A DNA stretch of 14,526 nt from DASVDK01 sp036562265 [NCBI: Thermodesulfobacteriota bacterium] (lineage in GTDB: Bacteria > DASVDK01), in assembly GCA_036562265.1 (NCBI GenBank), contig DATCKS010000104.1, forward strand, positions 1 to 14,526, given 5' to 3'. Positions 2,739 to 12,592 of the stretch are shown piece by piece. The translations under genes and the position numbers were made by a program. The notes beneath the pieces were generated by a model, which did not search any database, was not told where the DNA came from, and worked only from the letters and a program-made list of their open reading frames with translations. The stretch's first letter is position 1, and each line of letters begins with the position of its first letter.

Positions 2739-3758
2739 ATGGCACTCAAGGACACCCCGCAGTACTACCACGAAGTTCTCAAACGCATTCCCCCTCGCGC
2801 GCTGCCGGCCTTCGAGGAGCCGGAGATGCAGGAGCGGGTCTGGGGCCGCCGCTGGGGCGTCTACGACGACGTCGGGCCGCTCAAGATCTGCGCCGTGCAC
2901 CGGCCGGGCGACGAGATTCGGGTCATGACGCAGGACAAGTACGACCCGACGATCGAGGCCCTGATCGACGACGACGCGCAGTGGTACTTCCGATCGGACC
3001 GCGCGCCGAACCTCGAGAAGATGCAGGCCGAGCACGACCAGATGACCCGGGCGCTGCGCGAGGAGGGGGTCGAGATCGTCGAGATCGGGGGGTCGCCGAC
3101 CGACCCGAAGGCGATGTACACGCGCGACAACGCCGTGGCGGTCCAGGGAGGGGCCATCATCGCCCGCATGGGGCCGGTCGGCCGCAACTTCGGCTGCGGG
3201 CGGCGCGGCGAGGAGGCTTACGCGGCGCGCGCGATCGCCGCGCTCGGCATGCCGATCCTCCGCACCATCCACGGCACCGGCCTCTTCGAGGGCGGCAGCT
3301 TCTGCTTCCTCAACGAGCGAAACGCCGCCATCGGCCTCTCGTTCCGCCAGAACGAGGAGGCGGCGCGCCAGATCGAGGAGGTGCTGGCGGTGCAGGGGGT
3401 GAAGCTCCACCGGGTGCCGCTCACCGGCCACAGCCTCCACATCGACAGCGCCATCGTCATGGTGGCCAAGGACCTGGCCCTCGTGAACGTGTCGCGCCTC
3501 CCCTACTGGTTCCTCGACACGTTGAAGGACCTCGGGATCCACACGGTGGAGGCGCACTGGGCCGACAACCCGCGCGTCGTCAACTGCCTCGCCGTGCGTC
3601 CGGGGCGTGTCCTGCTCGCCATCAACAACGGCGACGGCACCGCCGAACGGCTCGTCAAGCTCGGCGTCGAGGTGATCCCCATCGACTACGCCGAATGTCA
3701 GATGAACGGCGGCGGGATCCACTGCTCCACGCTGCCGCTCTTGCGCGAACGCGCCTGA
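2739..3758 (+). CDS. Amidinotransferase-fold guanidine hydrolase (arginine deiminase/DDAH superfamily)
   Basis: A 339-residue member of the guanidino-modifying superfamily (arginine deiminase, dimethylarginine dimethylaminohydrolase, agmatine deiminase, amidinotransferases). These cytoplasmic enzymes attack a guanidinium carbon with a cysteine and form a thiouronium intermediate. The catalytic set is recognisable: TRDN (128-131), E184 in FEGGSF, H234 and D236 in HSLHID, and nucleophile C329 in NGGGIHCSTLPL near the C-terminus. Length is between DDAH (about 250-285) and arginine deiminase (about 400). The ATG at 2739 starts MALKDTPQYY; it has no Shine-Dalgarno sequence, and TATTCT ends 7 nt upstream, which suggests a leaderless transcript. 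It is first in the operon, 17 bp before the substrate-binding protein. A hydrolase of arginine or of an N-modified arginine/guanidino acid is the likeliest role; a true amidinotransferase is possible. Superfamily sure, substrate not. Confidence 0.88.
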   Translation: MALKDTPQYYHEVLKRIPPRALPAFEEPEMQERVWGRRWGVYDDVGPLKICAVHRPGDEIRVMTQDKYDPTIEALIDDDAQWYFRSDRAPNLEKMQAEHDQMTRALREEGVEIVEIGGSPTDPKAMYTRDNAVAVQGGAIIARMGPVGRNFGCGRRGEEAYAARAIAALGMPILRTIHGTGLFEGGSFCFLNERNAAIGLSFRQNEEAARQIEEVLAVQGVKLHRVPLTGHSLHIDSAIVMVAKDLALVNVSRLPYWFLDTLKDLGIHTVEAHWADNPRVVNCLAVRPGRVLLAINNGDGTAERLVKLGVEVIPIDYAECQMNGGGIHCSTLPLLRERA

Positions 3759-3775: not shown

Positions 3776-5356
3776 ATGCTGTCTCGCATCGCGACGTTCA
3801 CCGCCGCGCTGCTGCTGCTGGCCGTCGCCAGCGCGTCCCATGCAGCCACGCCGCCCGACACGCTCGTCATCGGCTACAACCGGGCGGCCAACAACCTGCT
3901 ACCGGGCCAGAACCCGGGGTTGCCCAACATCTGGGCCAACATGCTGATCTACGACTGCCTCGTCATCCACGACGGGGAGGGGAAGATTCACCCGGGTCTC
4001 GCCGAGCGGTGGGAGCTGGCGAAGGACGGCGTCACCTGGACCTTCCACCTCCGCAAGGACGTGACCTTCCACTCGGGGCGGAAGTTCACGGCGAAGGACG
4101 TGAAGGCCCACTTCGACATGTGGAAGACGCTGCCGACGGCGAGCAAGATCGCGGCGCTCGACCGGACGGAGATCGTCGACGACTACACGGTCCGCTTCGT
4201 CCTCAAGTACCCGACGCTGGTCTTCCTCAACATGATCAGCCAGACGGAGTGGTCGTACTGCGGCATCCCCGACTCCGAGCAGGTGGCCAAGTACGGCAAG
4301 GACTACGGCGTGGTGCCGGAGTCGGTCTCCGGGACCGGCCCGTTCAAGCTCGTCCGGTGGATCCGCGAGGACCGGCTGGAGTTCGAGCGTAACCCGGCCT
4401 ACACGTGGGGCCCGGCGTTCTACAAGAACCGCGGGCCGGCCCACATCCAGAAGGTCGTCATCCGCTCGATCGCCGACGCCGCCGCGCGCACGGCCGCGCT
4501 CGAGCGGGGCGAGATCGACATGGACATCAGCCTCTCGGAGTTCGACGCCAAGCGGCTGTCGGCCATGAAGGGGCTCTCGGTCATCGTCAAGCCGAAGAAC
4601 ACGACCCACAACCTCGGCTTCAACCACGACAAGCCGCTCTGGAAGGACGTGCGCGTCCGCCAGGCGCTGATGTACGCGATCGACCAGAAGCCGATCGTCG
4701 AGGCGGTCTTCGCGGGCTACGCCCAGCCGGCGATCGGGCTCTTCGCGCCGTCGGTCGAGGGGTCCGCCCCCGACGACGCGGTGCGCGCCGTCTTCCCCGG
4801 CTACAACCCCGAGAAGGCGAAGGCCCTCCTCGACGAGGCGGGCTGGAAGCCGGGGCCCGACGGCATCCGCGTGAAGGACGGGCAGCGGCTCGCGTTCAAC
4901 GTCTTCGTCTACAGCGAGCCGCAGGCGAACACCCTCACCGTGATCCAGGAGCAGTGGCGCGCGATCGGCGCCGAGGCGACGATCCGGCAGATGGAGTACG
5001 CCGCCTGGATCGAGGCGACCAAGAAGGGTGAGCACGACATCCGCTACGTCGACGGTACGCACAGCACGGCCGACATCGCGTACTGGTACACCTGCGCGGC
5101 GCGTCCGCACCCGAACAACATCTTCTGGTGCGACCCGACGACGGAGAAGCTCTACGAGATCACGCAGAAGACCACCGATCCGGCCGCGCGGGTCAAGGCC
5201 TTCCAGGACCTCGAGCTCGACCTCATCAAGCGCGCGGTCCTGATCCCGATGCCCCACACCGCCTGGGTCGTGGGCGTCTGGGACAGCGTGAAGGACCTCG
5301 AGCTGCACCCGATCCACGGGTACTACAAGCTCCTGGACGCGAGGAAGGCGCGCTGA
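3776..5356 (+). CDS. ABC transporter substrate-binding protein, family 5 (DppA/OppA type)
   Basis: A 526-residue extracytoplasmic binding protein of the SBP_bac_5 family, which captures di/oligopeptides, nickel complexes, opines or sugars for import. A Sec signal peptide is clear: positive start MLSR, hydrophobic core AALLLLAVA, and likely cleavage after SHA (residue 23). No lipobox cysteine follows, so a soluble periplasmic protein is expected. Family signatures include LAERWELAKDGVTWTFHLRK, the SGTGPFKLVRW segment near residue 200, LERGEIDM, and WKDVRVRQALMYAIDQ. Two cysteines in the C-terminal half (CAARPHPNNIFWC) are close enough to form a disulphide in the periplasm. It precedes two cognate permeases and overlaps the first by 4 bp. 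The neighbouring peptidases and guanidine hydrolase point to a peptide or amide-linked amino acid ligand, but the ligand cannot be read from sequence. Confidence 0.94.
   Translation: MLSRIATFTAALLLLAVASASHAATPPDTLVIGYNRAANNLLPGQNPGLPNIWANMLIYDCLVIHDGEGKIHPGLAERWELAKDGVTWTFHLRKDVTFHSGRKFTAKDVKAHFDMWKTLPTASKIAALDRTEIVDDYTVRFVLKYPTLVFLNMISQTEWSYCGIPDSEQVAKYGKDYGVVPESVSGTGPFKLVRWIREDRLEFERNPAYTWGPAFYKNRGPAHIQKVVIRSIADAAARTAALERGEIDMDISLSEFDAKRLSAMKGLSVIVKPKNTTHNLGFNHDKPLWKDVRVRQALMYAIDQKPIVEAVFAGYAQPAIGLFAPSVEGSAPDDAVRAVFPGYNPEKAKALLDEAGWKPGPDGIRVKDGQRLAFNVFVYSEPQANTLTVIQEQWRAIGAEATIRQMEYAAWIEATKKGEHDIRYVDGTHSTADIAYWYTCAARPHPNNIFWCDPTTEKLYEITQKTTDPAARVKAFQDLELDLIKRAVLIPMPHTAWVVGVWDSVKDLELHPIHGYYKLLDARKAR
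5341..5355 (+). promoter_or_regulatory. Ribosome binding site deciding a CTG start
   Basis: GAGGAAGG (5341-5348) lies within the last codons of the binding-protein gene and ends 4 nt before CTG at 5353-5355 (GAGG itself is 8 nt away). The CTG overlaps the TGA stop as CTGA, mirroring the ATGA and GTGA junctions downstream. No in-frame ATG, GTG or TTG lies close enough to give a normal permease N-terminus. Confidence 0.55.
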
Positions 5357-6297
5357 TCCCGTACGTCCTCAGGCGGCTCACCGCCGCCTGCTTCATCCTG
5401 GTCGGGGTCTCCCTGCTGGTGTTCGTCGCCGTGCGGCTCATCCCGGGAGACCCCGCCGCCGTCCTGGCCGGCGCCGACACCACGTCCGAGCAGATCGAGC
5501 AGATCCGGCGCGATCTGGGCCTCGATCGTCCGATCTGGGTCCAGTACGTGCGGTACGTGCGCCGGGCGCTGGAAGGGGACCTCGGGCGGTCGATCCACAG
5601 CCGGCAGCCGGTCGCCCAGGAGATCCTCGGCCGCTTCCCGGCCACGCTCGAACTGACGCTGGCGAGCCTCCTCATCGCGTCGATCGTCGGGATCGCCATC
5701 GGGGTGCTCTCGGCCGTGCGGCAGTACAGTCTCCTCGACCACATCACGATGGTCGGCGCGCTTGCCGGCATCTCCATGCCGGTCTTCCTGATCGGCATCC
5801 TCCTGGTCTGGTTCTTCTCGCTCTACCTGGGCTGGCTGCCGACCGGCGGCCGGCCCGAGTGCTGGGCCTGCGCCGATCGCGTGATCCACCTGATCCTCCC
5901 CACCCTGACGCTGGCCGGGATCTCGGTCGGCATGATCGCGCGCCTCACGCGCGCGACCATGCTCGAGGTCATCCGCGAGGACTTCAACCGGACCGCCCGC
6001 GCCAAGGGGCTCAGCGAGCGGGCGGTGATCTGGCGGCACGCCCTCAGGAACGCCCTCATCCCGGTCGTGACCTTCCTCGGGCTCCAGTTCGGCGTCCTCC
6101 TCGGCGGCGCCGTGGTGACCGAGACGATCTTCTCCTGGCCCGGGATGGGCCGGCTCGTCGTCGAGGCCATCGGCTCGCGCGACTACCCGGTCATCCAGGG
6201 GACGGTCCTCTTCATGGCGATCCTGTTCGTCCTCATCAACCTCGCCGTGGACCTCCTCTACGGGGTCCTCGACCCGCGCGTGAGGACCGCACGATGA
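5353..6297 (+). CDS. ABC transporter permease (DppB/OppB type), probable CTG start
   Basis: A 314-residue inner-membrane subunit of a peptide/opine/nickel-type importer. The N-terminus IPYVLRRL followed by a transmembrane helix (about 10-30) and RLIPGDP (28-34) is typical of DppB proteins. Further hydrophobic segments lie at about 100-120, 132-160, 178-198, 235-258 and 282-305. The EAA-like cytoplasmic loop that contacts the ATPase is RTARAKGLSERAV (213-225) leading to RNALIP (232-237), and FSWPGMGRL (260-268) is a conserved permease motif. The start is unusual: alignment to the family demands initiation at the IPYVLRRL segment, where only CTG (5353) is available, with GAGGAAGG properly spaced upstream. 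A single base change would restore ATG, so a sequencing error is possible. Overlaps the preceding gene by 4 bp (CTGA) and the next by 4 bp (ATGA). Confidence 0.92.
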   Translation: MIPYVLRRLTAACFILVGVSLLVFVAVRLIPGDPAAVLAGADTTSEQIEQIRRDLGLDRPIWVQYVRYVRRALEGDLGRSIHSRQPVAQEILGRFPATLELTLASLLIASIVGIAIGVLSAVRQYSLLDHITMVGALAGISMPVFLIGILLVWFFSLYLGWLPTGGRPECWACADRVIHLILPTLTLAGISVGMIARLTRATMLEVIREDFNRTARAKGLSERAVIWRHALRNALIPVVTFLGLQFGVLLGGAVVTETIFSWPGMGRLVVEAIGSRDYPVIQGTVLFMAILFVLINLAVDLLYGVLDPRVRTAR

Positions 6298-7133
6298 GCC
6301 CCGCACTGCGCCGATTCAGCCGGCACCGCCTCGCCGTCGCGGGCCTCGTCTGCCTCGTGCTCATCGTGACCGCATCGGTGGCGGCGCCGCTCCTCACCCC
6401 CTACACGCCGACCCAGCAGTCCTTCACGCGGCGCCTGCAGGGCCCGTCGGCCCAGCACCTCCTGGGGACCGATCAGTTCGGCCGCGACATCTACACGCGC
6501 ATCCTCTACGGCGGCCGGCTCTCGGTCCTCTTCGGCGTCGCGGCGGTCGCCATCGGGCTCGCCGCCGGCGGCAGCCTGGGCCTTGCGGCCGGCTACTTCC
6601 GGCGGGTGGACGGTCCGGCCATGCGGGCGATGGACGTCCTCCTGTCGTTCCCGGCGGTGCTCCTGGCGATCATCGTCGTGGCGATCCTCGGACCCGGCTT
6701 CGGCACGGTCATGCTCGCGGTCGGCATCCGGCAGATCCCCGCGTACGCCCGCATGGTCCGGGGGGCGGTCCTCGTCGTGAAGGCGCTCCCCTACACCGAG
6801 GCCGCGATGGCCCTCGGATCGACCCACTGGCGGACGATCCGCTCGACCATCGTCCCGAACTGCGTCGCGCCGGTCCTCGTCTTCTCGACCTTGCAGATCG
6901 CCAACGCGATCCTGCTCGCGTCGATCCTCTCCTTCCTCGGCCTCGGGGTCCAACCGCCCGCGGCCGAATGGGGGATCATGGTGAACCAGGGTCGCGCGTT
7001 CCTGCGCGACGCCCCGCACGTCGCCATCGTCCCCGGCCTCGCGATCTTCCTCGTCGTCATGAGCTTCAACATGATCGGCGACGGGCTGCGCGACAGCCTC
7101 GACGTGCGGCTCAGGGACGGGAGCCACTCGTGA
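6294..7133 (+). CDS. ABC transporter permease (DppC/OppC type)
   Basis: A 279-residue inner-membrane partner of the preceding permease. It has the DppC layout: one N-terminal helix (about 11-33), a periplasmic stretch ending in HLLGTDQFGRDIYTRILYG (55-73), which is the family hallmark, then five hydrophobic segments. The EAA loop is canonical, with E169, A170, A171, G175 and the IVPN end (186-189), and is the docking site for an ABC ATPase. SFLGLGVQPPAAEWG (213-227) is another typical DppC motif. The ATG at 6294 overlaps the previous stop (ATGA) and has GAGG 8 nt upstream. The gene ends in a GTGA overlap with the next M20 gene. No ATP-binding subunit follows, unlike standard dppABCDF operons, so the ATPases must come from elsewhere in the genome. 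Confidence 0.94.
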   Translation: MSPALRRFSRHRLAVAGLVCLVLIVTASVAAPLLTPYTPTQQSFTRRLQGPSAQHLLGTDQFGRDIYTRILYGGRLSVLFGVAAVAIGLAAGGSLGLAAGYFRRVDGPAMRAMDVLLSFPAVLLAIIVVAILGPGFGTVMLAVGIRQIPAYARMVRGAVLVVKALPYTEAAMALGSTHWRTIRSTIVPNCVAPVLVFSTLQIANAILLASILSFLGLGVQPPAAEWGIMVNQGRAFLRDAPHVAIVPGLAIFLVVMSFNMIGDGLRDSLDVRLRDGSHS

Positions 7134-8413
7134 AGCGACGCATCGTGGAGGAGGTGGACCGGCGGCGGGACGAGTTCGTCGCGCTCCTGTCCCGCGTGGT
7201 CCAGTTCAACACCGACAACCCGCCGTCGGACACGCGGGCGCTCGCCGCCTTCATCGCGGACTGGCTCCGGGCACGCGGCATCGCCGCCGAGGTCGTCATG
7301 CCGTACGAGCCGTACGCGAACGTCGTCGCGGCGCTCGGGCCCAAGGGGGCGACGCCCCACCTCACGCTGAACGGCCACCTCGACCAGTTCCCGGCCGACG
7401 AGCCGAGCCTCTGGCGCGACGGTCCCTACTCCGGGGTCGTCCGCGACGGCAAGATCTACGGCCGCGGCGTCTCCGACATGAAGGGCGGCACCACCGCCTC
7501 GCTCATCGCCTTCGCGCTCATGAAGGAACTCGAGGTGCCGCTCCGGGGTCGGCTGAGCTTCACCGCCGTCGCCGACGAGGAGAGCGGCGGCGAGTACGGC
7601 ACGCGCTGGATCCTCGCGCACCACCAGGAGTACGTCGGCCAGGCGTGCCTGAACGGCGAGCCCTACGCGCCCGACGTGGTCGGCATCGGCGAGCGCGGCA
7701 CGTACCGGGTCATCCTCCGCGCCGAGGGCGAGCCGATGCACGGCTCCCTCTCGTCGGGCGACAACTGCATCATGCGCATGGCCGAGGCCCTCCTCGCCCT
7801 TCGCCCGCTCGTCCACGAGAAGTCCGACATCCCGCGGGAACTCGAGGCGATCGTCGAGCGGCAGCGGTCCTACACGCGCAGCCCCCAGGACGCCGGCAAG
7901 GGGTACCTCCTCGACCACCCCTCCTACAACGTCGGCGTCATCCGCGGCGGCACGAAGCTGAACGTCGTGCCCCGCTTCTGCGAGGCGGAGGTCGACATCC
8001 GGCTGCCGGTCGGTTTCTCCGTCGCCCGCATGGACAGCCTGGTCAAACGGCTCCTGCGCGAGGCCGGCCGGTCGGACGTCACCGTGACGCCGGCGCGCGA
8101 GACGGCCGGCCGCGCCCCGGATCGCCCCTCCGCGGAGCGCACCGGGGAGCCGACCTGGACGAGTCCCGACGAGCGGCTCGTCCAGATCGTCAGGGCCAAC
8201 GCCGCGGCGCAGATCGGGAAGGAGCCCATCTACTACCTCGGCCTCGGCGCCACCGACGGGCGGCTCTTCCGCGCCCACGGGGTGCCGACCGTCATCTACG
8301 GACCCCGCCCCTTCAACATGGGCGGCATCGACGAGCACATCGCCGTCGACGACTTCCTCACCGTCGTCAAGGTGCACGCCTTGACGATCGTGGACTACCT
8401 CGGACTCGCGTAA
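7130..8413 (+). CDS. M20 family metallopeptidase/deacylase with complete metal site (ArgE/DapE-like)
   Basis: A 427-residue two-domain metal-dependent amidohydrolase of the ArgE/DapE/ACY1/CPG2 group, likely cytoplasmic. The full catalytic set is present: H83 and D85 in NGHLDQFP, bridging D116 in GVSDMKGG, general base E150 and ligand E151 in ADEESGG, E177 in NGEP, and H403 in GIDEHIAVDD. The dimerisation-domain histidine is H204 (PMHGS). Members hydrolyse N-acyl amino acids, dipeptides or N-carbamoyl compounds. The start is GTG at 7130, overlapping the permease stop as GTGA, with CGGGAG 6 nt upstream; earlier in-frame codons lie inside the permease gene. It is separated by 11 bp from a second, degenerate M20 gene, so the two are co-translated and might form a hetero-oligomer. 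Substrate presumably arrives through the adjacent transporter. Family certain, specificity unknown. Confidence 0.93.
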   Translation: MKRRIVEEVDRRRDEFVALLSRVVQFNTDNPPSDTRALAAFIADWLRARGIAAEVVMPYEPYANVVAALGPKGATPHLTLNGHLDQFPADEPSLWRDGPYSGVVRDGKIYGRGVSDMKGGTTASLIAFALMKELEVPLRGRLSFTAVADEESGGEYGTRWILAHHQEYVGQACLNGEPYAPDVVGIGERGTYRVILRAEGEPMHGSLSSGDNCIMRMAEALLALRPLVHEKSDIPRELEAIVERQRSYTRSPQDAGKGYLLDHPSYNVGVIRGGTKLNVVPRFCEAEVDIRLPVGFSVARMDSLVKRLLREAGRSDVTVTPARETAGRAPDRPSAERTGEPTWTSPDERLVQIVRANAAAQIGKEPIYYLGLGATDGRLFRAHGVPTVIYGPRPFNMGGIDEHIAVDDFLTVVKVHALTIVDYLGLA

Positions 8414-8424
8414 CGGAGACCCTC

Positions 8425-9672
8425 ATGGCCATCAAGGACCAGATCCTCGCCCGCGTCGACCCCGACGAGGTCATCCAGCTCGCCAAGGACCTCGTCAAGA
8501 TCCCGAGCTTCACCACCGAGGAGACCGAGTGCGCCCGGTTCCTCCACGACCTCTTCCGCAAGGAGGGTTTCGAGTCCGAGCTGCAGGAGGTGGACCCCGG
8601 CCGCTTCCAGACCGTGGCCCGGCTGCGCGGTACCGGCGGCGGCAAGAGCCTCATGCTGAACGGCCACATCGACATCGACCCGATGGGGGCCGGCTGGCGG
8701 CGCGACCCCTTCACCGCCACCATCGAGGGCGACCGGATCTACGGCGCGGGGATCTTCAACATGAAGGGGGGCGTGGCCTCGATGGTCATCGCCGCGCTCG
8801 CCGCGAAGCGGAGCGGCGTCCGGCTCCGGGGCGACGTCGTAGTCGCCTGCGTGGCCGGCGAGCTGCAGGGCGGCGTCGGGACGGTGCACCTCCTCGAGCG
8901 GGGGATCCGCACCGACTACGCCATCGTCCCCGAGCCGTACGACACGAAGAACATCATCACGAAGCACACCGGCGTGATGCAGATCCTCGTGCACGTGATC
9001 GGCCGCTCGGCGCACATCTCGCGCAAGGAGCAGGGGATCAACGCCATCGTCAAGATGGCGAAGGTCGTCGAGGCGCTCGAGAACGCGAAGCTCCGCCACA
9101 CGCACGACCCCGACCTCCCGGGCCTGCCGCGCCACCAGGTCGGCACCATCATCGGCGGCCGCGGCTACACGCCGGGTGGGCATTCGTACCGCGGCGTCGA
9201 GACGCGAGGCGCCAACATCGTCCCCGACGTCTGCACGATCTGGATCGACGTGCGCTTCAACCAGAGCATGACCCCCGAGAGCATCCTCGAGGACATCACC
9301 GCGGTGCTCGAGCAGACGAAGCGGAACGACCCCGACTTCCAGTACGAGATCGAGTTCCCGCCGGTCCCCGAGCGCAAGGCGAACCGCATCGTCATGCCGC
9401 CCATGTCGGTGCCGGTCACGGCGCACATCGTCCAGACGTTGAAGAAGAACGTCACCGCCATCATCGGCGAGGAGCCGAACGTCGGGGCGGTCGCGCCCTT
9501 CAGCTACGCCGGCAACGACACCGCGCACCTCTACAACGCCGGCATCGAGTGCTGCCTCTACGGGCCGGTGGCCGGCTACACCACGGAGTTCCCCGACCGC
9601 TGGACCTCCGTGAAGCAGATGCAGGACTGCGCGAAGGCGCTCGCCGCGACCATCGCCGACATCTGCGCCTGA
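8425..9672 (+). CDS. M20 family protein with altered metal-binding site
   Basis: A 415-residue M20-fold protein directly after the canonical copy, starting at ATG 8425 with GGAG 6 nt upstream. The fold landmarks are kept: NGHIDID (H81, D83), NMKGG, VPEP (E170) and GRSAHIS (H197) in the dimerisation domain. By the spacing of conserved blocks, however, the bridging aspartate of the DMKGG block is N112 (GIFNMKGG), the DEE triad is GEL (general base E146 kept, the second glutamate replaced by L147), and the C-terminal metal histidine region reads FPDRW (R392). Three of the usual ligands are therefore missing while the rest of the domain is intact and unbroken. It could be a single-metal or metal-independent hydrolase, a binding or regulatory partner of the upstream enzyme, or a subfamily with its own chemistry. 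Other M20 proteins with an NMK variant may exist; I could not check. Overlaps the next start by 1 bp. Confidence 0.88.
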   Translation: MAIKDQILARVDPDEVIQLAKDLVKIPSFTTEETECARFLHDLFRKEGFESELQEVDPGRFQTVARLRGTGGGKSLMLNGHIDIDPMGAGWRRDPFTATIEGDRIYGAGIFNMKGGVASMVIAALAAKRSGVRLRGDVVVACVAGELQGGVGTVHLLERGIRTDYAIVPEPYDTKNIITKHTGVMQILVHVIGRSAHISRKEQGINAIVKMAKVVEALENAKLRHTHDPDLPGLPRHQVGTIIGGRGYTPGGHSYRGVETRGANIVPDVCTIWIDVRFNQSMTPESILEDITAVLEQTKRNDPDFQYEIEFPPVPERKANRIVMPPMSVPVTAHIVQTLKKNVTAIIGEEPNVGAVAPFSYAGNDTAHLYNAGIECCLYGPVAGYTTEFPDRWTSVKQMQDCAKALAATIADICA

Positions 9673-10859
9673 TGGTGATCCGCTGCGGCACGCTGATCGA
9701 CGGCGTCTCCGCCGCGCCGCGGCGGGACGCGACGATCGGCGTGCGGGAGGGCAGGATCGTGGAGGCGGAGGGGCGGGTGGACCTCGACCTCTCCGCGTAC
9801 ACGGTCCTGCCCGGCTTCGTCGACGCGCACGACCACCTCGGCTTCGGCGTGGGCGAGGCCAAGACGGCGCTCGCGGACGAGTCGCCGGTCTGGGTCATGG
9901 CCAAGGCCGCCGCCGTCCTGCGCGGCGCCCTCGAGGCCGGCGTCACGACGCTCAGAACCCTCGGCGACCGCGACCAGGTCGACCTCCTCGCCCGACGGGC
10001 GATCGACCAGGGGCTCCTGCCCGGCCCCCGGCTCCTCGTGGCCGGCGTGCCGATGACCCGGCCGTCCGGCGGGATGTTCTGGTACCCGCCGGCCCTGGCC
10101 GACGGCCCCGACGGCGTGCGGGCGCACGTCCGCCGCGAGGTCGCCGCCGGCGTCGACTGGCTCAAGATGTTCGCCACCGGCCCGGCCGGCACGCCCACCT
10201 CGGCCACCGCGACGCCGCTCTTCACCCGCGAGGCGATCCTCGCCGCCGGCGACGAGGTGCGCCGCGCCGGCAAGCGACTCGCCGTGCACGCCCACGACCC
10301 GACCGCCGTCCGCTGGGCCGTCGAGGCGGGGGCGCACACGATCGAGCACGGCGTCCACCTCGACGCCCCGACCCTCGACCTCATGGCCGAACGCGGCGTG
10401 AGCCTCGTCGTCACCGCCAGCTACTACGAGGTGGCGGCGCGCCACCCCGCCTACCCTCCCGAGGTGCAGGCGCGCTTCCGGACCGCCCTCGAGGTCGCCC
10501 GGCAGGGGCTCGCCCTCGCGCGGCGCGCCGGGGTGAACCTGGCCGTCGGCACCGACGAGAACCACGGCCGCATCGACATGGAGGTGGCGATCCTCCGCTC
10601 GGGCGGCTACACGCCCATGGAGTCGCTGCGCGCCGCGACCCTCGGCGGCGCCATCGCCTGCGGCGTCGACCGGGAGGTGGGGAGCCTCGAGCCGGGCAAG
10701 GCGGCCGACCTCGTGGCCGTCGACGGCGACCCCCTGGCGGACGTGTCGGCCATCCGCCGCGTCGTCCTCGTCATGAAGGGGGGGAAGATCGTGGTGGACA
10801 GGCGGCCCCGCGCGGGTCAGGACCTGACGGCAGTCGAGGAAACGGGGCCACAGCCCTGA
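9672..10859 (+). CDS. Metal-dependent amidohydrolase (imidazolonepropionase/prolidase-like)
   Basis: A 395-residue amidohydrolase-superfamily enzyme with a TIM-barrel metal centre. The N-terminal beta-sandwich (GTLIDG, DATIGVREGRIV) leads to the HxH motif VDAHDH (H53, H55). Next come K165 in DWLKMFATG, a probable carboxylated bridging lysine, H206/H208 in AVHAHD, H226 in TIEHGVHLD, and the catalytic aspartate D295 in GTDENHG. The C-terminus closes the sandwich with GSLEPGKAADLVAVDGDP. This pattern resembles the imidazolonepropionase-related and Xaa-Pro/Xaa-Arg/Lys dipeptidase groups, which hydrolyse cyclic amides or dipeptides. The ATG at 9672 shares one base with the preceding stop (TGATG) and has no Shine-Dalgarno sequence, so translation is probably coupled. 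It is the last gene of the operon; 99 bp then separate it from the toxin-antitoxin pair. Substrate inferred only from context. Confidence 0.9.
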   Translation: MVIRCGTLIDGVSAAPRRDATIGVREGRIVEAEGRVDLDLSAYTVLPGFVDAHDHLGFGVGEAKTALADESPVWVMAKAAAVLRGALEAGVTTLRTLGDRDQVDLLARRAIDQGLLPGPRLLVAGVPMTRPSGGMFWYPPALADGPDGVRAHVRREVAAGVDWLKMFATGPAGTPTSATATPLFTREAILAAGDEVRRAGKRLAVHAHDPTAVRWAVEAGAHTIEHGVHLDAPTLDLMAERGVSLVVTASYYEVAARHPAYPPEVQARFRTALEVARQGLALARRAGVNLAVGTDENHGRIDMEVAILRSGGYTPMESLRAATLGGAIACGVDREVGSLEPGKAADLVAVDGDPLADVSAIRRVVLVMKGGKIVVDRRPRAGQDLTAVEETGPQP

Positions 10860-10884: not shown

Positions 10885-10915
10885 TTGCAGAAGTACCCAC
10901 TTTGTGGGATATTAT
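10885..10915 (+). promoter_or_regulatory. Promoter of the AbiE module
   Basis: TTGCAG (10885-10890) and TATTAT (10910-10915) are spaced by 19 nt. The -10 hexamer matches consensus at five of six positions and lies in a locally AT-rich stretch. The first inverted repeat (10896-10908) sits in the spacer, so a bound repressor would block RNA polymerase. Confidence 0.5.
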
Positions 10916-10955
10916 GAGAACGATGCGGACTTCGGAAGTCCCCATTGAGTGGGCA
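10891..10955. promoter_or_regulatory. Paired inverted-repeat operator of the AbiE module
   Basis: Two 20-bp sites 45 bp apart resemble each other: 10891-10910 contains CCCAC-TTT-GTGGG, a perfect 5-bp-arm repeat, and 10936-10955 contains CCCAT-TGA-GTGGG, with one arm mismatch. They share AAGT at the left and GTGGG at the right. A further perfect repeat GGACTTC-G-GAAGTCC (10927-10941) touches the second site. Published AbiEi antitoxins bind two inverted repeats and autorepress cooperatively; the arrangement here fits that model, with one site between -35 and -10 and the other after the expected transcription start. Binding itself is inferred. Confidence 0.5.
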
Positions 10956-10958
10956 GTC

Positions 10959-11771
10959 ATGCAAACGTCGCGCGATACCCGACCTTCGTCGCTTTCGGAT
11001 TTCGTCGACGCCCTACAGGCTACCGGTCGCTATACCTTCACGCATGCGGAGGCAGTAGCCGCGCTCGGCCGCTCGGACAAGGCGGTACGGAGCGCTCTGG
11101 GGCGACTCGCGGCCAAGCAGCGGATTGTCAGTCCCCGCCGGGGCTTCCATGTCATCGTCCCCCTCGAGTACCGTTCGGCAGGTGGGCCGCCACCGTCGTG
11201 GTTCATTGACGCCCTCATGGACTTCATCGGGCGACCGTACTACGTCGGCCTCCTGACCGCCGCCATGATCCATGGTGCGGCTCACCAGTCTCCTCAAGAG
11301 TTCCAGGTCATCACGAGCGGTCCGCTACGGACGGCCAGAGCGGGCCGAGCCCGAATCCGCTTTCTGACGAAGCGACGCGTCGAGCGGACGCCAACCATGC
11401 GGGTCTCGACCCCCGCTGGAAGCATGCGAGTCTCGACCAGAGAGGCAACCGCCCTCGACCTCGTCCGGTACGCACCGAGCATCGGATCCCTGGATACCGT
11501 AGCAACCGTGCTGGTCGAGCTCGCCAATCGCCTCGATGGATCGCTGCTGGTCGAGGCCGCGCAGGCAGACCAGGAACTCGCCACGGTTCAACGGCTCGGC
11601 TATCTGCTCGAACGTGTCGGCGGCGGAAGCGTCACAGGTCCTCTCGCCGAGTGGCTGGCGGCACAACGACCCCGTCCGACTCGGCTCCGACCGGACCGGC
11701 CTCTGGGGGCCGCTCGGAAGGATGAACGGTGGGCGTTGTACGTCAATGAAACGGTGGAGCCGGACCTGTGA
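10959..11771 (+). CDS. abiEi: AbiEi-type antitoxin/transcriptional repressor (type IV toxin-antitoxin)
   Basis: A 270-residue AbiEi-family antitoxin. The N-terminal winged helix-turn-helix spans about residues 10-65 (SLSDFVDALQATGRYTFT, then LGRSDKAVRSALGRLAAKQR and the wing SPRRGFHVIVP), typical of AbiEi. The C-terminal domain (about 78-270) contains WFIDALMDFIGRPYYVGLL and TREATALDLVRY, also family-typical. Members repress their own promoter and neutralise the AbiEii toxin without forming a stable complex. Start choice is uncertain: ATG 10959 lies after both operator repeats and has a weak GAGTGGG upstream, while ATG 10923 would add 12 residues and lie 7 nt after the -10 hexamer, as a leaderless start. 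The gene overlaps the toxin by 4 bp (GTGA). Composition is less GC-rich, with more A/T-ending codons than its neighbours, suggesting horizontal acquisition. Confidence 0.87.
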   Translation: MQTSRDTRPSSLSDFVDALQATGRYTFTHAEAVAALGRSDKAVRSALGRLAAKQRIVSPRRGFHVIVPLEYRSAGGPPPSWFIDALMDFIGRPYYVGLLTAAMIHGAAHQSPQEFQVITSGPLRTARAGRARIRFLTKRRVERTPTMRVSTPAGSMRVSTREATALDLVRYAPSIGSLDTVATVLVELANRLDGSLLVEAAQADQELATVQRLGYLLERVGGGSVTGPLAEWLAAQRPRPTRLRPDRPLGAARKDERWALYVNETVEPDL

Positions 11772-12592
11772 TCCCTCGGGCGTTCATTACTCAATGGCGG
11801 GCGTCGGCGCCGTGGCCAGAGGACGCGCAGGTAGAGCAGGACCTCGTCATCTCCAGAGCCCTTGTCGAGATCTTCTCGGACCCCGTTCTCTCCGTAGCAC
11901 TCGCCTTCCGAGGCGGGACCGCTCTCCACAAGCTGTTCCTGGCCCCGCCCGCCCGCTACTCGGAGGATATCGACCTTGTCCAGGTGGTTGCAGGCCCGGC
12001 TGGACCGATCCTGGACGCGGTTCGCAAGCTTCTTGACCCCTGGCTCAAGGAGCCGAGGGTCGATCGAACCCCGCACTCTGTCAGGCTCACGTACCGGTTT
12101 CCGTCCGAGGTCCCTCCCGTCGTACAACTGCGCCTCAAGGTCGAGATCAACACCCGGGAGCACTTCTCGGTCCTCGGCTTCGAGCGCAAGCGCTTCGCTG
12201 TCGAGAACGGTTGGTTCTCCGGACGCGCGGAGGTGCAGACCTACAGATTGGAGGAGTTGCTCGGTACGAAGCTTCGGGCGCTGCACGAGAGAAAAAAAGG
12301 GCGCGATCTGTTCGACCTGTCCATGGCTCTCACGAAACACGCACCAGACCCCAGCGACATCGTCGAGTGCTTTCGGAGGTACCTCGAGCAAGAGGGTAAA
12401 CACGTCTCGCGTGCGGAGTTCGAGAGGTCGTTCGCGGCAAAGCTCGGGGATCCCGCATTTCACACGGACGTTCGTTCACTACTCGCTCCCGGATCTCCGT
12501 ACGATCCGAACGGTGCTGCACGAACCGTGTACGAGACGCTTGTAGCCCGGATCCCCGGCGAGCCTTGGAAGAAGAGCCCGTTCGGACTCTAG
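11768..12592 (+). CDS. abiEii: AbiEii-type nucleotidyltransferase toxin
   Basis: A 274-residue AbiEii/DUF1814-family protein of the DNA polymerase beta-like nucleotidyltransferase fold. All family motifs are present: motif I FRGGTALHK (47-55) with RYSEDIDL (63-70), where D67 and D69 bind metal; motif II KVEIN (124-128) with E126; and motifs III/IV in RKKGRDLFDL (175-184), with a conserved lysine, D180 and D183. The related toxin MenT3 adds pyrimidines to tRNA acceptor ends and AbiEii is reported to bind GTP; the activity of this copy is unknown. It starts at GTG 11768, overlapping the antitoxin stop as GTGA, so the pair is translationally coupled. The frame is intact, with no missing catalytic residue. 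A run of seven A bases (12292-12298) encodes part of the lysine motif. The local sequence is the least GC-rich in the window. Confidence 0.9.
   Translation: MIPRAFITQWRASAPWPEDAQVEQDLVISRALVEIFSDPVLSVALAFRGGTALHKLFLAPPARYSEDIDLVQVVAGPAGPILDAVRKLLDPWLKEPRVDRTPHSVRLTYRFPSEVPPVVQLRLKVEINTREHFSVLGFERKRFAVENGWFSGRAEVQTYRLEELLGTKLRALHERKKGRDLFDLSMALTKHAPDPSDIVECFRRYLEQEGKHVSRAEFERSFAAKLGDPAFHTDVRSLLAPGSPYDPNGAARTVYETLVARIPGEPWKKSPFGL

What the first reader, a model, noticed from the sequence alone, without database searches (positions are those of the whole stretch)
8425..9672. Tandem M20 protein that has lost metal ligands while its neighbour keeps them
Compared with the two other M20 proteins in the same window, this one has Asn at the bridging aspartate (N112, in NMKGG), Leu at the second glutamate of the DEE triad (L147), and Arg where the C-terminal metal histidine is expected (R392). 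H81, D83, E146, E170 and the dimer-domain H197 remain. The frame is intact and translationally linked to the active-looking paralogue, so this looks like selected change rather than decay. It may be a pseudo-enzyme partner, a one-metal enzyme or a distinct chemistry.
Basis: partly seen in the sequence, partly recalled or inferred. Interest (0 to 1): 0.6.

Follow-up and report, generated by a model that had tools for sequence, protein, structure and literature searches.

The report
Widespread one-metal M20 hydrolase subfamily
This protein belongs to a broad, conserved branch of a common amide-cutting enzyme family that has lost one of the two usual metal sites but kept the other and most of the catalytic machinery, so it is more likely a working one-metal enzyme than a dead copy.

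Summary
The frame at 8425-9672 is an intact M20 protein (P0001). Aligned with E. coli ArgE it keeps the Zn1 ligands H81 and E170, the base E146 and the dimer-domain H197, but has Asn at the bridging Asp (N112), Leu at a Zn2 ligand (L147) and Glu388 in the C-terminal His column; R392 is not that position. Neighbour P0002 lacks the His too (Gly). The change is not private: all 90 rows with N112 have G145, E146 and E170, and none has Glu147 or His in that column. They form one clade over several bacterial phyla and an archaeal MAG. By profile, the best PDB match is 5-nitroanthranilate aminohydrolase, which shares all three changes; by single sequence and by fold, DapE/ArgE-like entries come first. 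Best reading: a selected one-metal hydrolase, probably cutting amides of small transported compounds. Pseudo-enzyme is unlikely. Bolder lead: in 43 of 51 related loci the gene cluster also holds an M20 with Asn at the opposite site's ligand E169. Metal content, substrate and heteromers are untested.

The parts
8425..9672 (+). N-type (Asn112 / GEL) M20 protein P0001, 415 aa
   Evidence: Pfam M20 76.9 bits and M20_dimer 60.7 bits; TIGR01910 220.2 bits, cut-off 217.6; AF2 pLDDT 95.4, pTM 0.93
8414..8419 (+). CGGAGA, Shine-Dalgarno-like, between the P0002 stop (8411-8413) and ATG 8425
   Evidence: sequence read
8665..8667 (+). His81 codon: kept Zn1 ligand (EcArgE H80)
   Evidence: 90 of 90 N-type rows
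8758..8760 (+). Asn112 codon: in place of the bridging Asp (EcArgE D112)
   Evidence: it defines the N-type rows
8860..8862 (+). Glu146 codon: general base (EcArgE E144)
   Evidence: 90 of 90 N-type rows
8863..8865 (+). Leu147 codon: Zn2 ligand lost (EcArgE E145)
   Evidence: L 83, T 6, I 1 of 90; Glu never
8932..8934 (+). Glu170 codon: kept Zn1 ligand (EcArgE E169)
   Evidence: 90 of 90 N-type rows; 25 of 26 in the 9-genome sample, Asp in one
9013..9015 (+). His197 codon: dimer-domain His (EcArgE H195)
   Evidence: 87 of 90, Trp in 3; 19 of 26 in the 9-genome sample
9586..9588 (+). Glu388 codon: column of the C-terminal Zn2 His (EcArgE H355)
   Evidence: Thr in 63, Glu in 5, Asp in 5 of 90 N-type rows
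9598..9600 (+).
   Evidence: E in 54 of 54 Asp112 rows and 68 of 90 N-type rows
7130..8413 (+). P0002, neighbouring M20 with Asp and both Glu but Gly for the C-terminal His (NMGGIDEH)
9672..10859 (+). amidohydrolase (Amidohydro_1), start overlaps the P0001 stop by one base
3776..7133 (+). dipeptide/nickel-type ABC transporter: substrate-binding protein (3776-5356) and two permeases (5353-6297, 6294-7133)
   Evidence: frames; NCBIfam matches below the equivalog cut-offs
2739..3758 (+). arginine deiminase / dimethylargininase-like protein
   Evidence: Pfam ADI 63.3 bits; a relative lies beside the N-type gene in L122
273..1415 (+). third M20 protein of the window, with all five metal-ligand positions canonical

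Best explanation
P0001 is an active, probably dimeric M20 hydrolase that works with one metal ion. Shown by sequence: the residues that only Zn2 uses in ArgE (E145, H355) are replaced and the bridging Asp is Asn, whereas H81 and E170 of Zn1 and the general base E146 are kept, throughout a clade found in several bacterial phyla and one archaeal MAG; the dimer-domain H197 is kept in most. Inferred: a single divalent metal held by H81, N112 (side-chain O) and E170 activates water with E146, and H197 helps bind the carbonyl. The room freed at Zn2 is taken by the substrate or by group-specific residues (Glu388 here, Thr in the rhizobial branch). Inferred from the gene cluster: it cleaves an amide bond of a small peptide-like or N-acylated compound brought in by the dipeptide-type ABC transporter, as one step of a catabolic gene set.
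For: Alignment with EcArgE, whose ligand roles were read in passages of PMC11270798: Zn1 = H80, D112, E169, present in mono- and di-zinc forms; Zn2 = D112, E145, H355. The kept half is the one occupied in mono-zinc ArgE. Passages of PMC4791643: the second DapE site is of low affinity, not essential, and loss of one zinc changes catalysis little. Conservation: H81, D83, G145, E146, E170 in 90 of 90 N-type rows, H197 in 87 of 90. Linkage in 48 readable M20 hits of 9 genomes. One clade, SH-aLRT 98. Profile A5 hits 5NAA-A best in the PDB (4e-47), which has Asn, Glu-Ile and no His at these sites and whose entries are titled Mn2+/5NSA-bound and Zn2+/tetrahedral-intermediate-bound. Confident M20 fold.
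Against: No metal or activity measurement. Asn is a weaker ligand than Asp, so metal could be labile or absent. In mono-zinc DapE, H349 was proposed to stand in for the second metal (PMC4791643), and that His is lost here. 17 of 90 N-type rows have a His elsewhere in the 378-397 segment, and L168 of the 9-genome sample has His residues near the H355 position, so a substitute ligand is not excluded for some members. H197 holds in only 19 of 26 N-type rows of the 9-genome sample and E170 in 25 of 26. Most of the 90 rows come from related proteobacteria and are not independent. Without the signature columns the quick tree needed two changes; without the long 5NAA-A-like row it was one, and the constrained single clade fitted better (p-AU 0.784). 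P0001 alone (phmmer) and its fold match DapE/ArgE-like entries before 5NAA-A. The substrate is a guess from neighbours.
Confidence: 0.7

Rival explanations
1. Pseudo-enzyme: P0001 has no activity and serves as a structural or regulatory partner of P0002.
For: Three metal-site residues changed; the gene directly follows P0002; an M20 enzyme with two different subunits, one poorer in metal ligands, exists (AbgA/AbgB, passages of PMC5082436).
Against: Base and Zn1 ligands kept in 90 of 90 rows, dimer-domain His in 87. 19 of 67 loci with at least 7 kb upstream show no Asp-type M20 in the held stretch (unclassified M20 pieces, as in L011 and L015, were not counted). The closest relative's fetched 16 kb has no second M20. 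P0002 relatives lie next to an N-type gene in 1 of 10 genomes.
Confidence: 0.08
2. Distinct chemistry like 5NAA-A: metal-dependent attack of water on a non-amide centre, for example aromatic substitution or deamination.
For: Same three changes as 5NAA-A, best profile hit. Passage of PMC9814641: 5NAA-A uses enzyme-coordinated M2+ to replace the amino group by hydroxyl.
Against: P0001 keeps H197 where 5NAA-A has Tyr, and has Ile265 where 5NAA-A has R289 (alignment; R289 named in the 5k8p title). Neighbours are peptide-type transporters and peptidases.
Confidence: 0.1
3. Binuclear after all: Glu388 or another residue, such as a shifted His in some members, replaces a lost ligand.
For: Glu388 sits in the His column; 5 of 90 rows have Glu and 5 Asp there. 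17 of 90 rows have a His elsewhere in the segment.
Against: 63 of 90 rows have Thr and 8 Gly in the His column, and the other Zn2-only ligand is Leu, Thr or Ile in 90 of 90. P0001 has no His in the segment.
Confidence: 0.07
4. Obligate active heteromer: the N-type protein and a second M20 form one enzyme with complementary half-sites.
For: In 43 of 51 loci of the NTMP branch the same gene cluster also encodes an M20 with Asn at E169 (46 of 46 such rows), keeping the Zn2 ligands. AbgA/AbgB heterotetramer is a precedent.
Against: 0 of 16 loci of the window's side have that partner. In M20 proteins the metal ligands of a site come from one subunit, so half-sites do not complete each other (recalled; in line with the EcArgE passage). 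Shared inheritance of one operon explains co-occurrence as well.
Confidence: 0.12

Closest known systems
5-nitroanthranilate aminohydrolase 5NAA-A (PDB 5k8m-5k8p)
   Same: M20 fold (VIA Z 39.8-40.9); Asn at the bridging Asp (N124), Glu-Ile (E158-I159), no C-terminal His; best profile match in the PDB. Residue numbers counted by eye from the printed alignment.
   Different: 25-29% identity. 5NAA-A has Tyr at the dimer-domain His, R289 where P0001 has I265, and an insertion after GEI. By P0001's sequence alone DapE ranks higher. A shared substrate is unlikely (inference).
E. coli ArgE and DapE (7rsf/8uw6, 7uoi, 3isz)
   Same: Fold; H81, E146, E170, H197, R277 and N264 match ArgE residues; above the TIGR01910 DapE-ArgE cut-off. 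7uoi is the top hit by phmmer and Foldseek.
   Different: Zn2 ligands and bridging Asp replaced; none of the equivalog models among the 25 families shown reached its cut-off.
AbgA/AbgB (p-aminobenzoyl-glutamate hydrolase)
   Same: Two M20-related proteins forming one enzyme, metal ligands partly lost in one subunit, Mn2+-dependent (passages of PMC5082436).
   Different: Different metal motif (by my recall subfamily M20D); heteromer shown there, untested here.
Carboxypeptidase G2 (1cg2)
   Same: Fold (VIA Z 34.4) and an H112/E200 half-site like the one kept here.
   Different: Binuclear site with D141, E176 and H385 (PMC5082436 Table 1).

Membership tests
Peptidase family M20 (PF01546 + PF07687) | Scores above curated cut-offs, catalytic plus dimerisation domain | tested here: met
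   76.9 vs 24.6 and 60.7 vs 21 bits; model matches M20 structures
Binuclear (co-catalytic) M20 enzymes | Five ligands H, D(bridging), E, E, H | tested here: not met
   H81 and E170 present; N112, L147, E388 in place of D, E, H
Binuclear (co-catalytic) M20 enzymes | Two metals per subunit | not testable with these tools
   needs ICP-MS or structure
ArgE/DapE deacylase subfamily TIGR01910 | Above the subfamily cut-off | tested here: met
   220.2 vs 217.6 bits, a narrow margin
ArgE or DapE proper | Equivalog model above cut-off | tested here: not met
   25 best of 47 families shown; none of the equivalogs shown passes, best ArgE/DapE-named ones far below
5NAA-A-type M20 | Asn at bridging Asp, Glu followed by non-acid, no C-terminal His | tested here: met
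5NAA-A-type M20 | 5NAA-A Arg289 | tested here: not met
   I265 in P0001 (alignment; residue named in the 5k8p title)
5NAA-A-type M20 | Hydrolysis of 5-nitroanthranilate by aromatic substitution | not testable with these tools
   needs assay
AbgAB-like heteromeric M20 | Stable complex of two different M20 subunits | not testable with these tools
   only monomer prediction offered

The most novel reading that the evidence does not exclude
N-type M20 proteins and their cluster-mate M20 proteins are reciprocally degenerate: one keeps only the Zn1 half-site (H-N-E), the other, in 43 of 51 NTMP-branch loci, keeps the Zn2 ligands but has Asn for the Zn1 ligand E169; in the window the partner P0002 lacks the Zn2 His. 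They would work as a heteromer of two one-metal active sites with a division of labour in one pathway for transported peptides.
Probability: 0.14. Interest if true: 0.72.

Novelty: new variant of a known kind. Interest (0 to 1): 0.47.

Why it matters
The M20 family is described by two co-catalytic metals with conserved binding sites (passages of PMC11511702). A conserved multi-phylum clade without the second site would be a natural experiment on whether that metal is needed, and suggests that the 5NAA-A active site is not a one-off. Members are annotated generically, for example as M20/M25/M40 metallo-hydrolase or M20 metallopeptidase (L007, L004), so a signature (N112, GE[LTI], no His in the H355 column) would help annotation.

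Tried and rejected
R392 as the lost His: rejected by two alignments. Neighbour as keeping all ligands: rejected. Random decay: rejected by conservation. Single-protein scans found no confirmed relatives in genome contigs and no match in viral contigs; the alignment query did find them. A dN/dS check of P0001 against L121 gave NG86 dN 0.29, dS 0.66, and YN00 failed; with third-position GC of 0.99 it is saturated and not used, and its L122 row was in a wrong frame. Literature: searches for a described one-metal or degenerate M20 subfamily gave 0 papers, 0, 4 and 30 of which 12 were listed; no listed title or abstract start describes one. 5NAA-A searches gave citing papers; the 5NAA-A paper itself is not held, so its metal details come from PDB titles, one citing passage and recall. 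The library holds open-licence papers only. No heterodimer model could be run; the second structure job was not used. ORFs of high-GC loci were chosen by a simple GC3 rule, which called some wrong frames; neighbours named in the report were matched by Pfam, NCBIfam or phmmer. The window's own genome is not held. In the second tree I left out the long row L025_7814_D.

Full report
What is there. Window 8425-9672 encodes an intact 415-aa protein, P0001. It matches Pfam Peptidase_M20 (76.9 bits) and M20_dimer (60.7 bits) and the TIGR01910 DapE-ArgE subfamily (220.2 bits against a cut-off of 217.6). It follows P0002 (7130-8413) after 11 bases holding CGGAGA, and its stop overlaps the start of an amidohydrolase by one base. 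Upstream are a dipeptide/nickel-type ABC transporter, an arginine deiminase/dimethylargininase-like gene, a D-amino-acid-dehydrogenase-like gene on the other strand and a third M20 protein.

Checking the residues. P0001 was aligned with E. coli ArgE (fetched), 145 other M20 rows and 11 relatives of P0002. EcArgE ligands were read from passages of PMC11270798: H80, D112 and E169 bind Zn1, which is present in both the mono- and the di-zinc structure; D112, E145 and H355 bind Zn2. Mapping: H80 to H81, D112 to N112, base E144 to E146, E145 to L147, E169 to E170, H195 to H197, R264 to R277, N251 to N264, H355 to E388. The third change is real but misplaced: R392 is in the Glu column of P-D-E (E in 54 of 54 Asp112 rows), and the His column holds Glu388. 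The neighbour does not keep all ligands either: P0002 has Gly in the His column, and the 12 rows of its group have Ala (7) or Gly (5).

Not a private change. Plasmid relatives already showed the same signature. Rows counted were plus-strand ORFs over 300 aa scoring over 90 bits to P0001 from loci L001-L090, P0001 itself, and lower-scoring M20 ORFs of the same loci; shorter pieces were dropped. Of 146 rows, 90 have Asn112. In those 90: H81 90, D83 90, G145 90, E146 90, E170 90, H197 87 (Trp in 3), residue 147 Leu 83, Thr 6, Ile 1. None has His three residues before the D391 column, but 17 of 90 have a His somewhere else in the 378-397 segment. N264 is Pro in 64 and Asn in 13 of the 90, R277 is Arg in 82. 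Many of the 90 are close proteobacterial orthologues, so these are not independent events.

As a less selected sample I took all 50 hits at E<=1e-20 in nine genomes (chosen because they hold an N-type gene); ten were already loci and 40 were fetched. 48 were readable: Asn112 with GEL 14, GET 6, GEI 5 or AEL 1 (26 of 26); Asp112 with DEE, GEE, AEE, HEE or QEE in 19, DEV in 1 and AHK (probably misaligned) in 2 of 22. No row joins Asn112 with Glu147. Against simple uniformity: in these 26 N rows H197 is kept in 19 and E170 in 25, the GEI rows being the most variable, and L168 has His residues near the H355 position.

One clade. With the signature columns removed, one long Asp row left out and more Asp rows added (89 rows), two changes were needed; without the long 5NAA-A-like row L032_3164 it was one, and holding all 44 together gave a better likelihood (p-AU 0.784). 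One origin is thus not rejected, and convergence of the 5NAA-A arm is not excluded. The nearest relative found has 65% identity and lies in G068, in the phylum of the Rokuibacteriota MAG G001; 15 of 95 genomes of that phylum match at 1e-60.

Closest solved structure. A profile of 50 N-type proteins (A5) hits 5-nitroanthranilate aminohydrolase best (4e-47), ahead of DapE 7uoi (2.6e-44). Other measures rank differently: phmmer with P0001 alone puts 7uoi first (4.1e-28) and 5NAA-A second (6.4e-23), Foldseek puts 7uoi and 3pfo first, VIA-align 3pfo (Z 43.1), then DapE and 5NAA-A (Z about 41). By the printed alignment, 5NAA-A has H86, N124, E158, I159, E196 and no His near its C-terminus (numbers counted by eye). 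PDB titles give Mn2+- and Zn2+-bound forms, and a passage of PMC9814641 describes enzyme-coordinated M2+ catalysing replacement of the amino group by hydroxyl. That 5NAA-A has a single labile metal is recalled, not read. P0001 differs: it keeps H197 (Tyr in 5NAA-A) and has I265 where 5NAA-A has R289. An ORF of L032 (3170-4456) whose best PDB hit is 5NAA-A (1e-53) shares the Asn-GEI signature. The AlphaFold2 model of P0001 is confident (pLDDT 95.4, pTM 0.93).

How it most likely works. The lost residues are those used only by Zn2 plus the bridge, the kept ones those of Zn1, and mono-zinc ArgE has its metal in Zn1. DapE's second site is described as low-affinity and not essential, with little loss of catalysis on removing one zinc, though H349 was proposed to take over the second metal's role (passages of PMC4791643); that His is absent here. 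I conclude by inference that P0001 is a one-metal hydrolase with E146 as base and H197 for carbonyl binding. The kept H197 and R277 favour an amide substrate. The dipeptide-type transporter, and M24 peptidases beside the N-type gene in L121 and L004, point to small peptides or N-acylated compounds. The exact substrate is unknown.

Is the neighbour its partner? Of 67 loci (of 80) with at least 7 kb upstream, 48 hold an Asp-type M20, 3 of them directly adjacent, and 19 none by a motif rule that leaves unclassified pieces out; 5 of all 80 loci have two N-type genes. P0002 relatives occur in 10 of 95 genomes of the phylum, next to an N-type gene in G001 (L123) and on the same contig 7-10 kb away in G008 and G009. 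So N-type proteins do not depend on P0002-like neighbours in general. A different pairing is frequent: in 43 of 51 loci of the branch with the NTMP motif, the same gene cluster holds an M20 that keeps H80, D112, E145 and H355 but has Asn at E169 (46 of 46 such rows), and in 0 of 16 loci of the window's side. PDB alignments of one such partner put the same Asn region opposite ArgE E169 and CPG2 E200. The pair has thus lost opposite half-sites. The partner count used a score threshold and misses at least L080, which has an Asp-type M20. Inheritance of one operon could explain the co-occurrence; AbgA/AbgB shows that M20 heteromers exist (passages of PMC5082436).

Verdict. Real, conserved, and best filed as a wider subfamily around a known exceptional enzyme, 5NAA-A: a new variant of a known kind. 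Searches of the open library listed no description of it, judging by titles and abstract starts, with 12 of 30 papers listed.

Noticed in passing
10902-12592: AbiEi (117 bits) and AbiEii (134 bits) type IV toxin-antitoxin pair with overlapping genes, right after the catabolic cluster.
   Followed up: no
L037 2565-3917 and 45 similar rows: Cluster-mate M20 proteins with Asn instead of the Zn1 ligand E169 in 46 of 46 rows, keeping the Zn2 ligands: the mirror image of the N-type loss.
   Followed up: partly
7130-8413 and loci L133-L143: P0002 group keeps Asp and both Glu but has Gly or Ala for the C-terminal metal His in 12 of 12 rows.
   Followed up: partly
L123 470-6603: Five M20-like ORFs in a row in a genome of the Rokuibacteriota group, including an N-type gene next to a P0002-like gene.
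   Followed up: no
L012 8896-10194: The N-type protein of an Acidobacteriota MAG begins with a twin-arginine-like leader (MKRRTFLEG...), so some members may be exported.
   Followed up: no
2739-3758; L122 8699-9766: Arginine deiminase/dimethylargininase-like gene near the N-type gene in both the window cluster and G064 (553 bits between them), hinting at guanidino compounds as substrates.
   Followed up: partly
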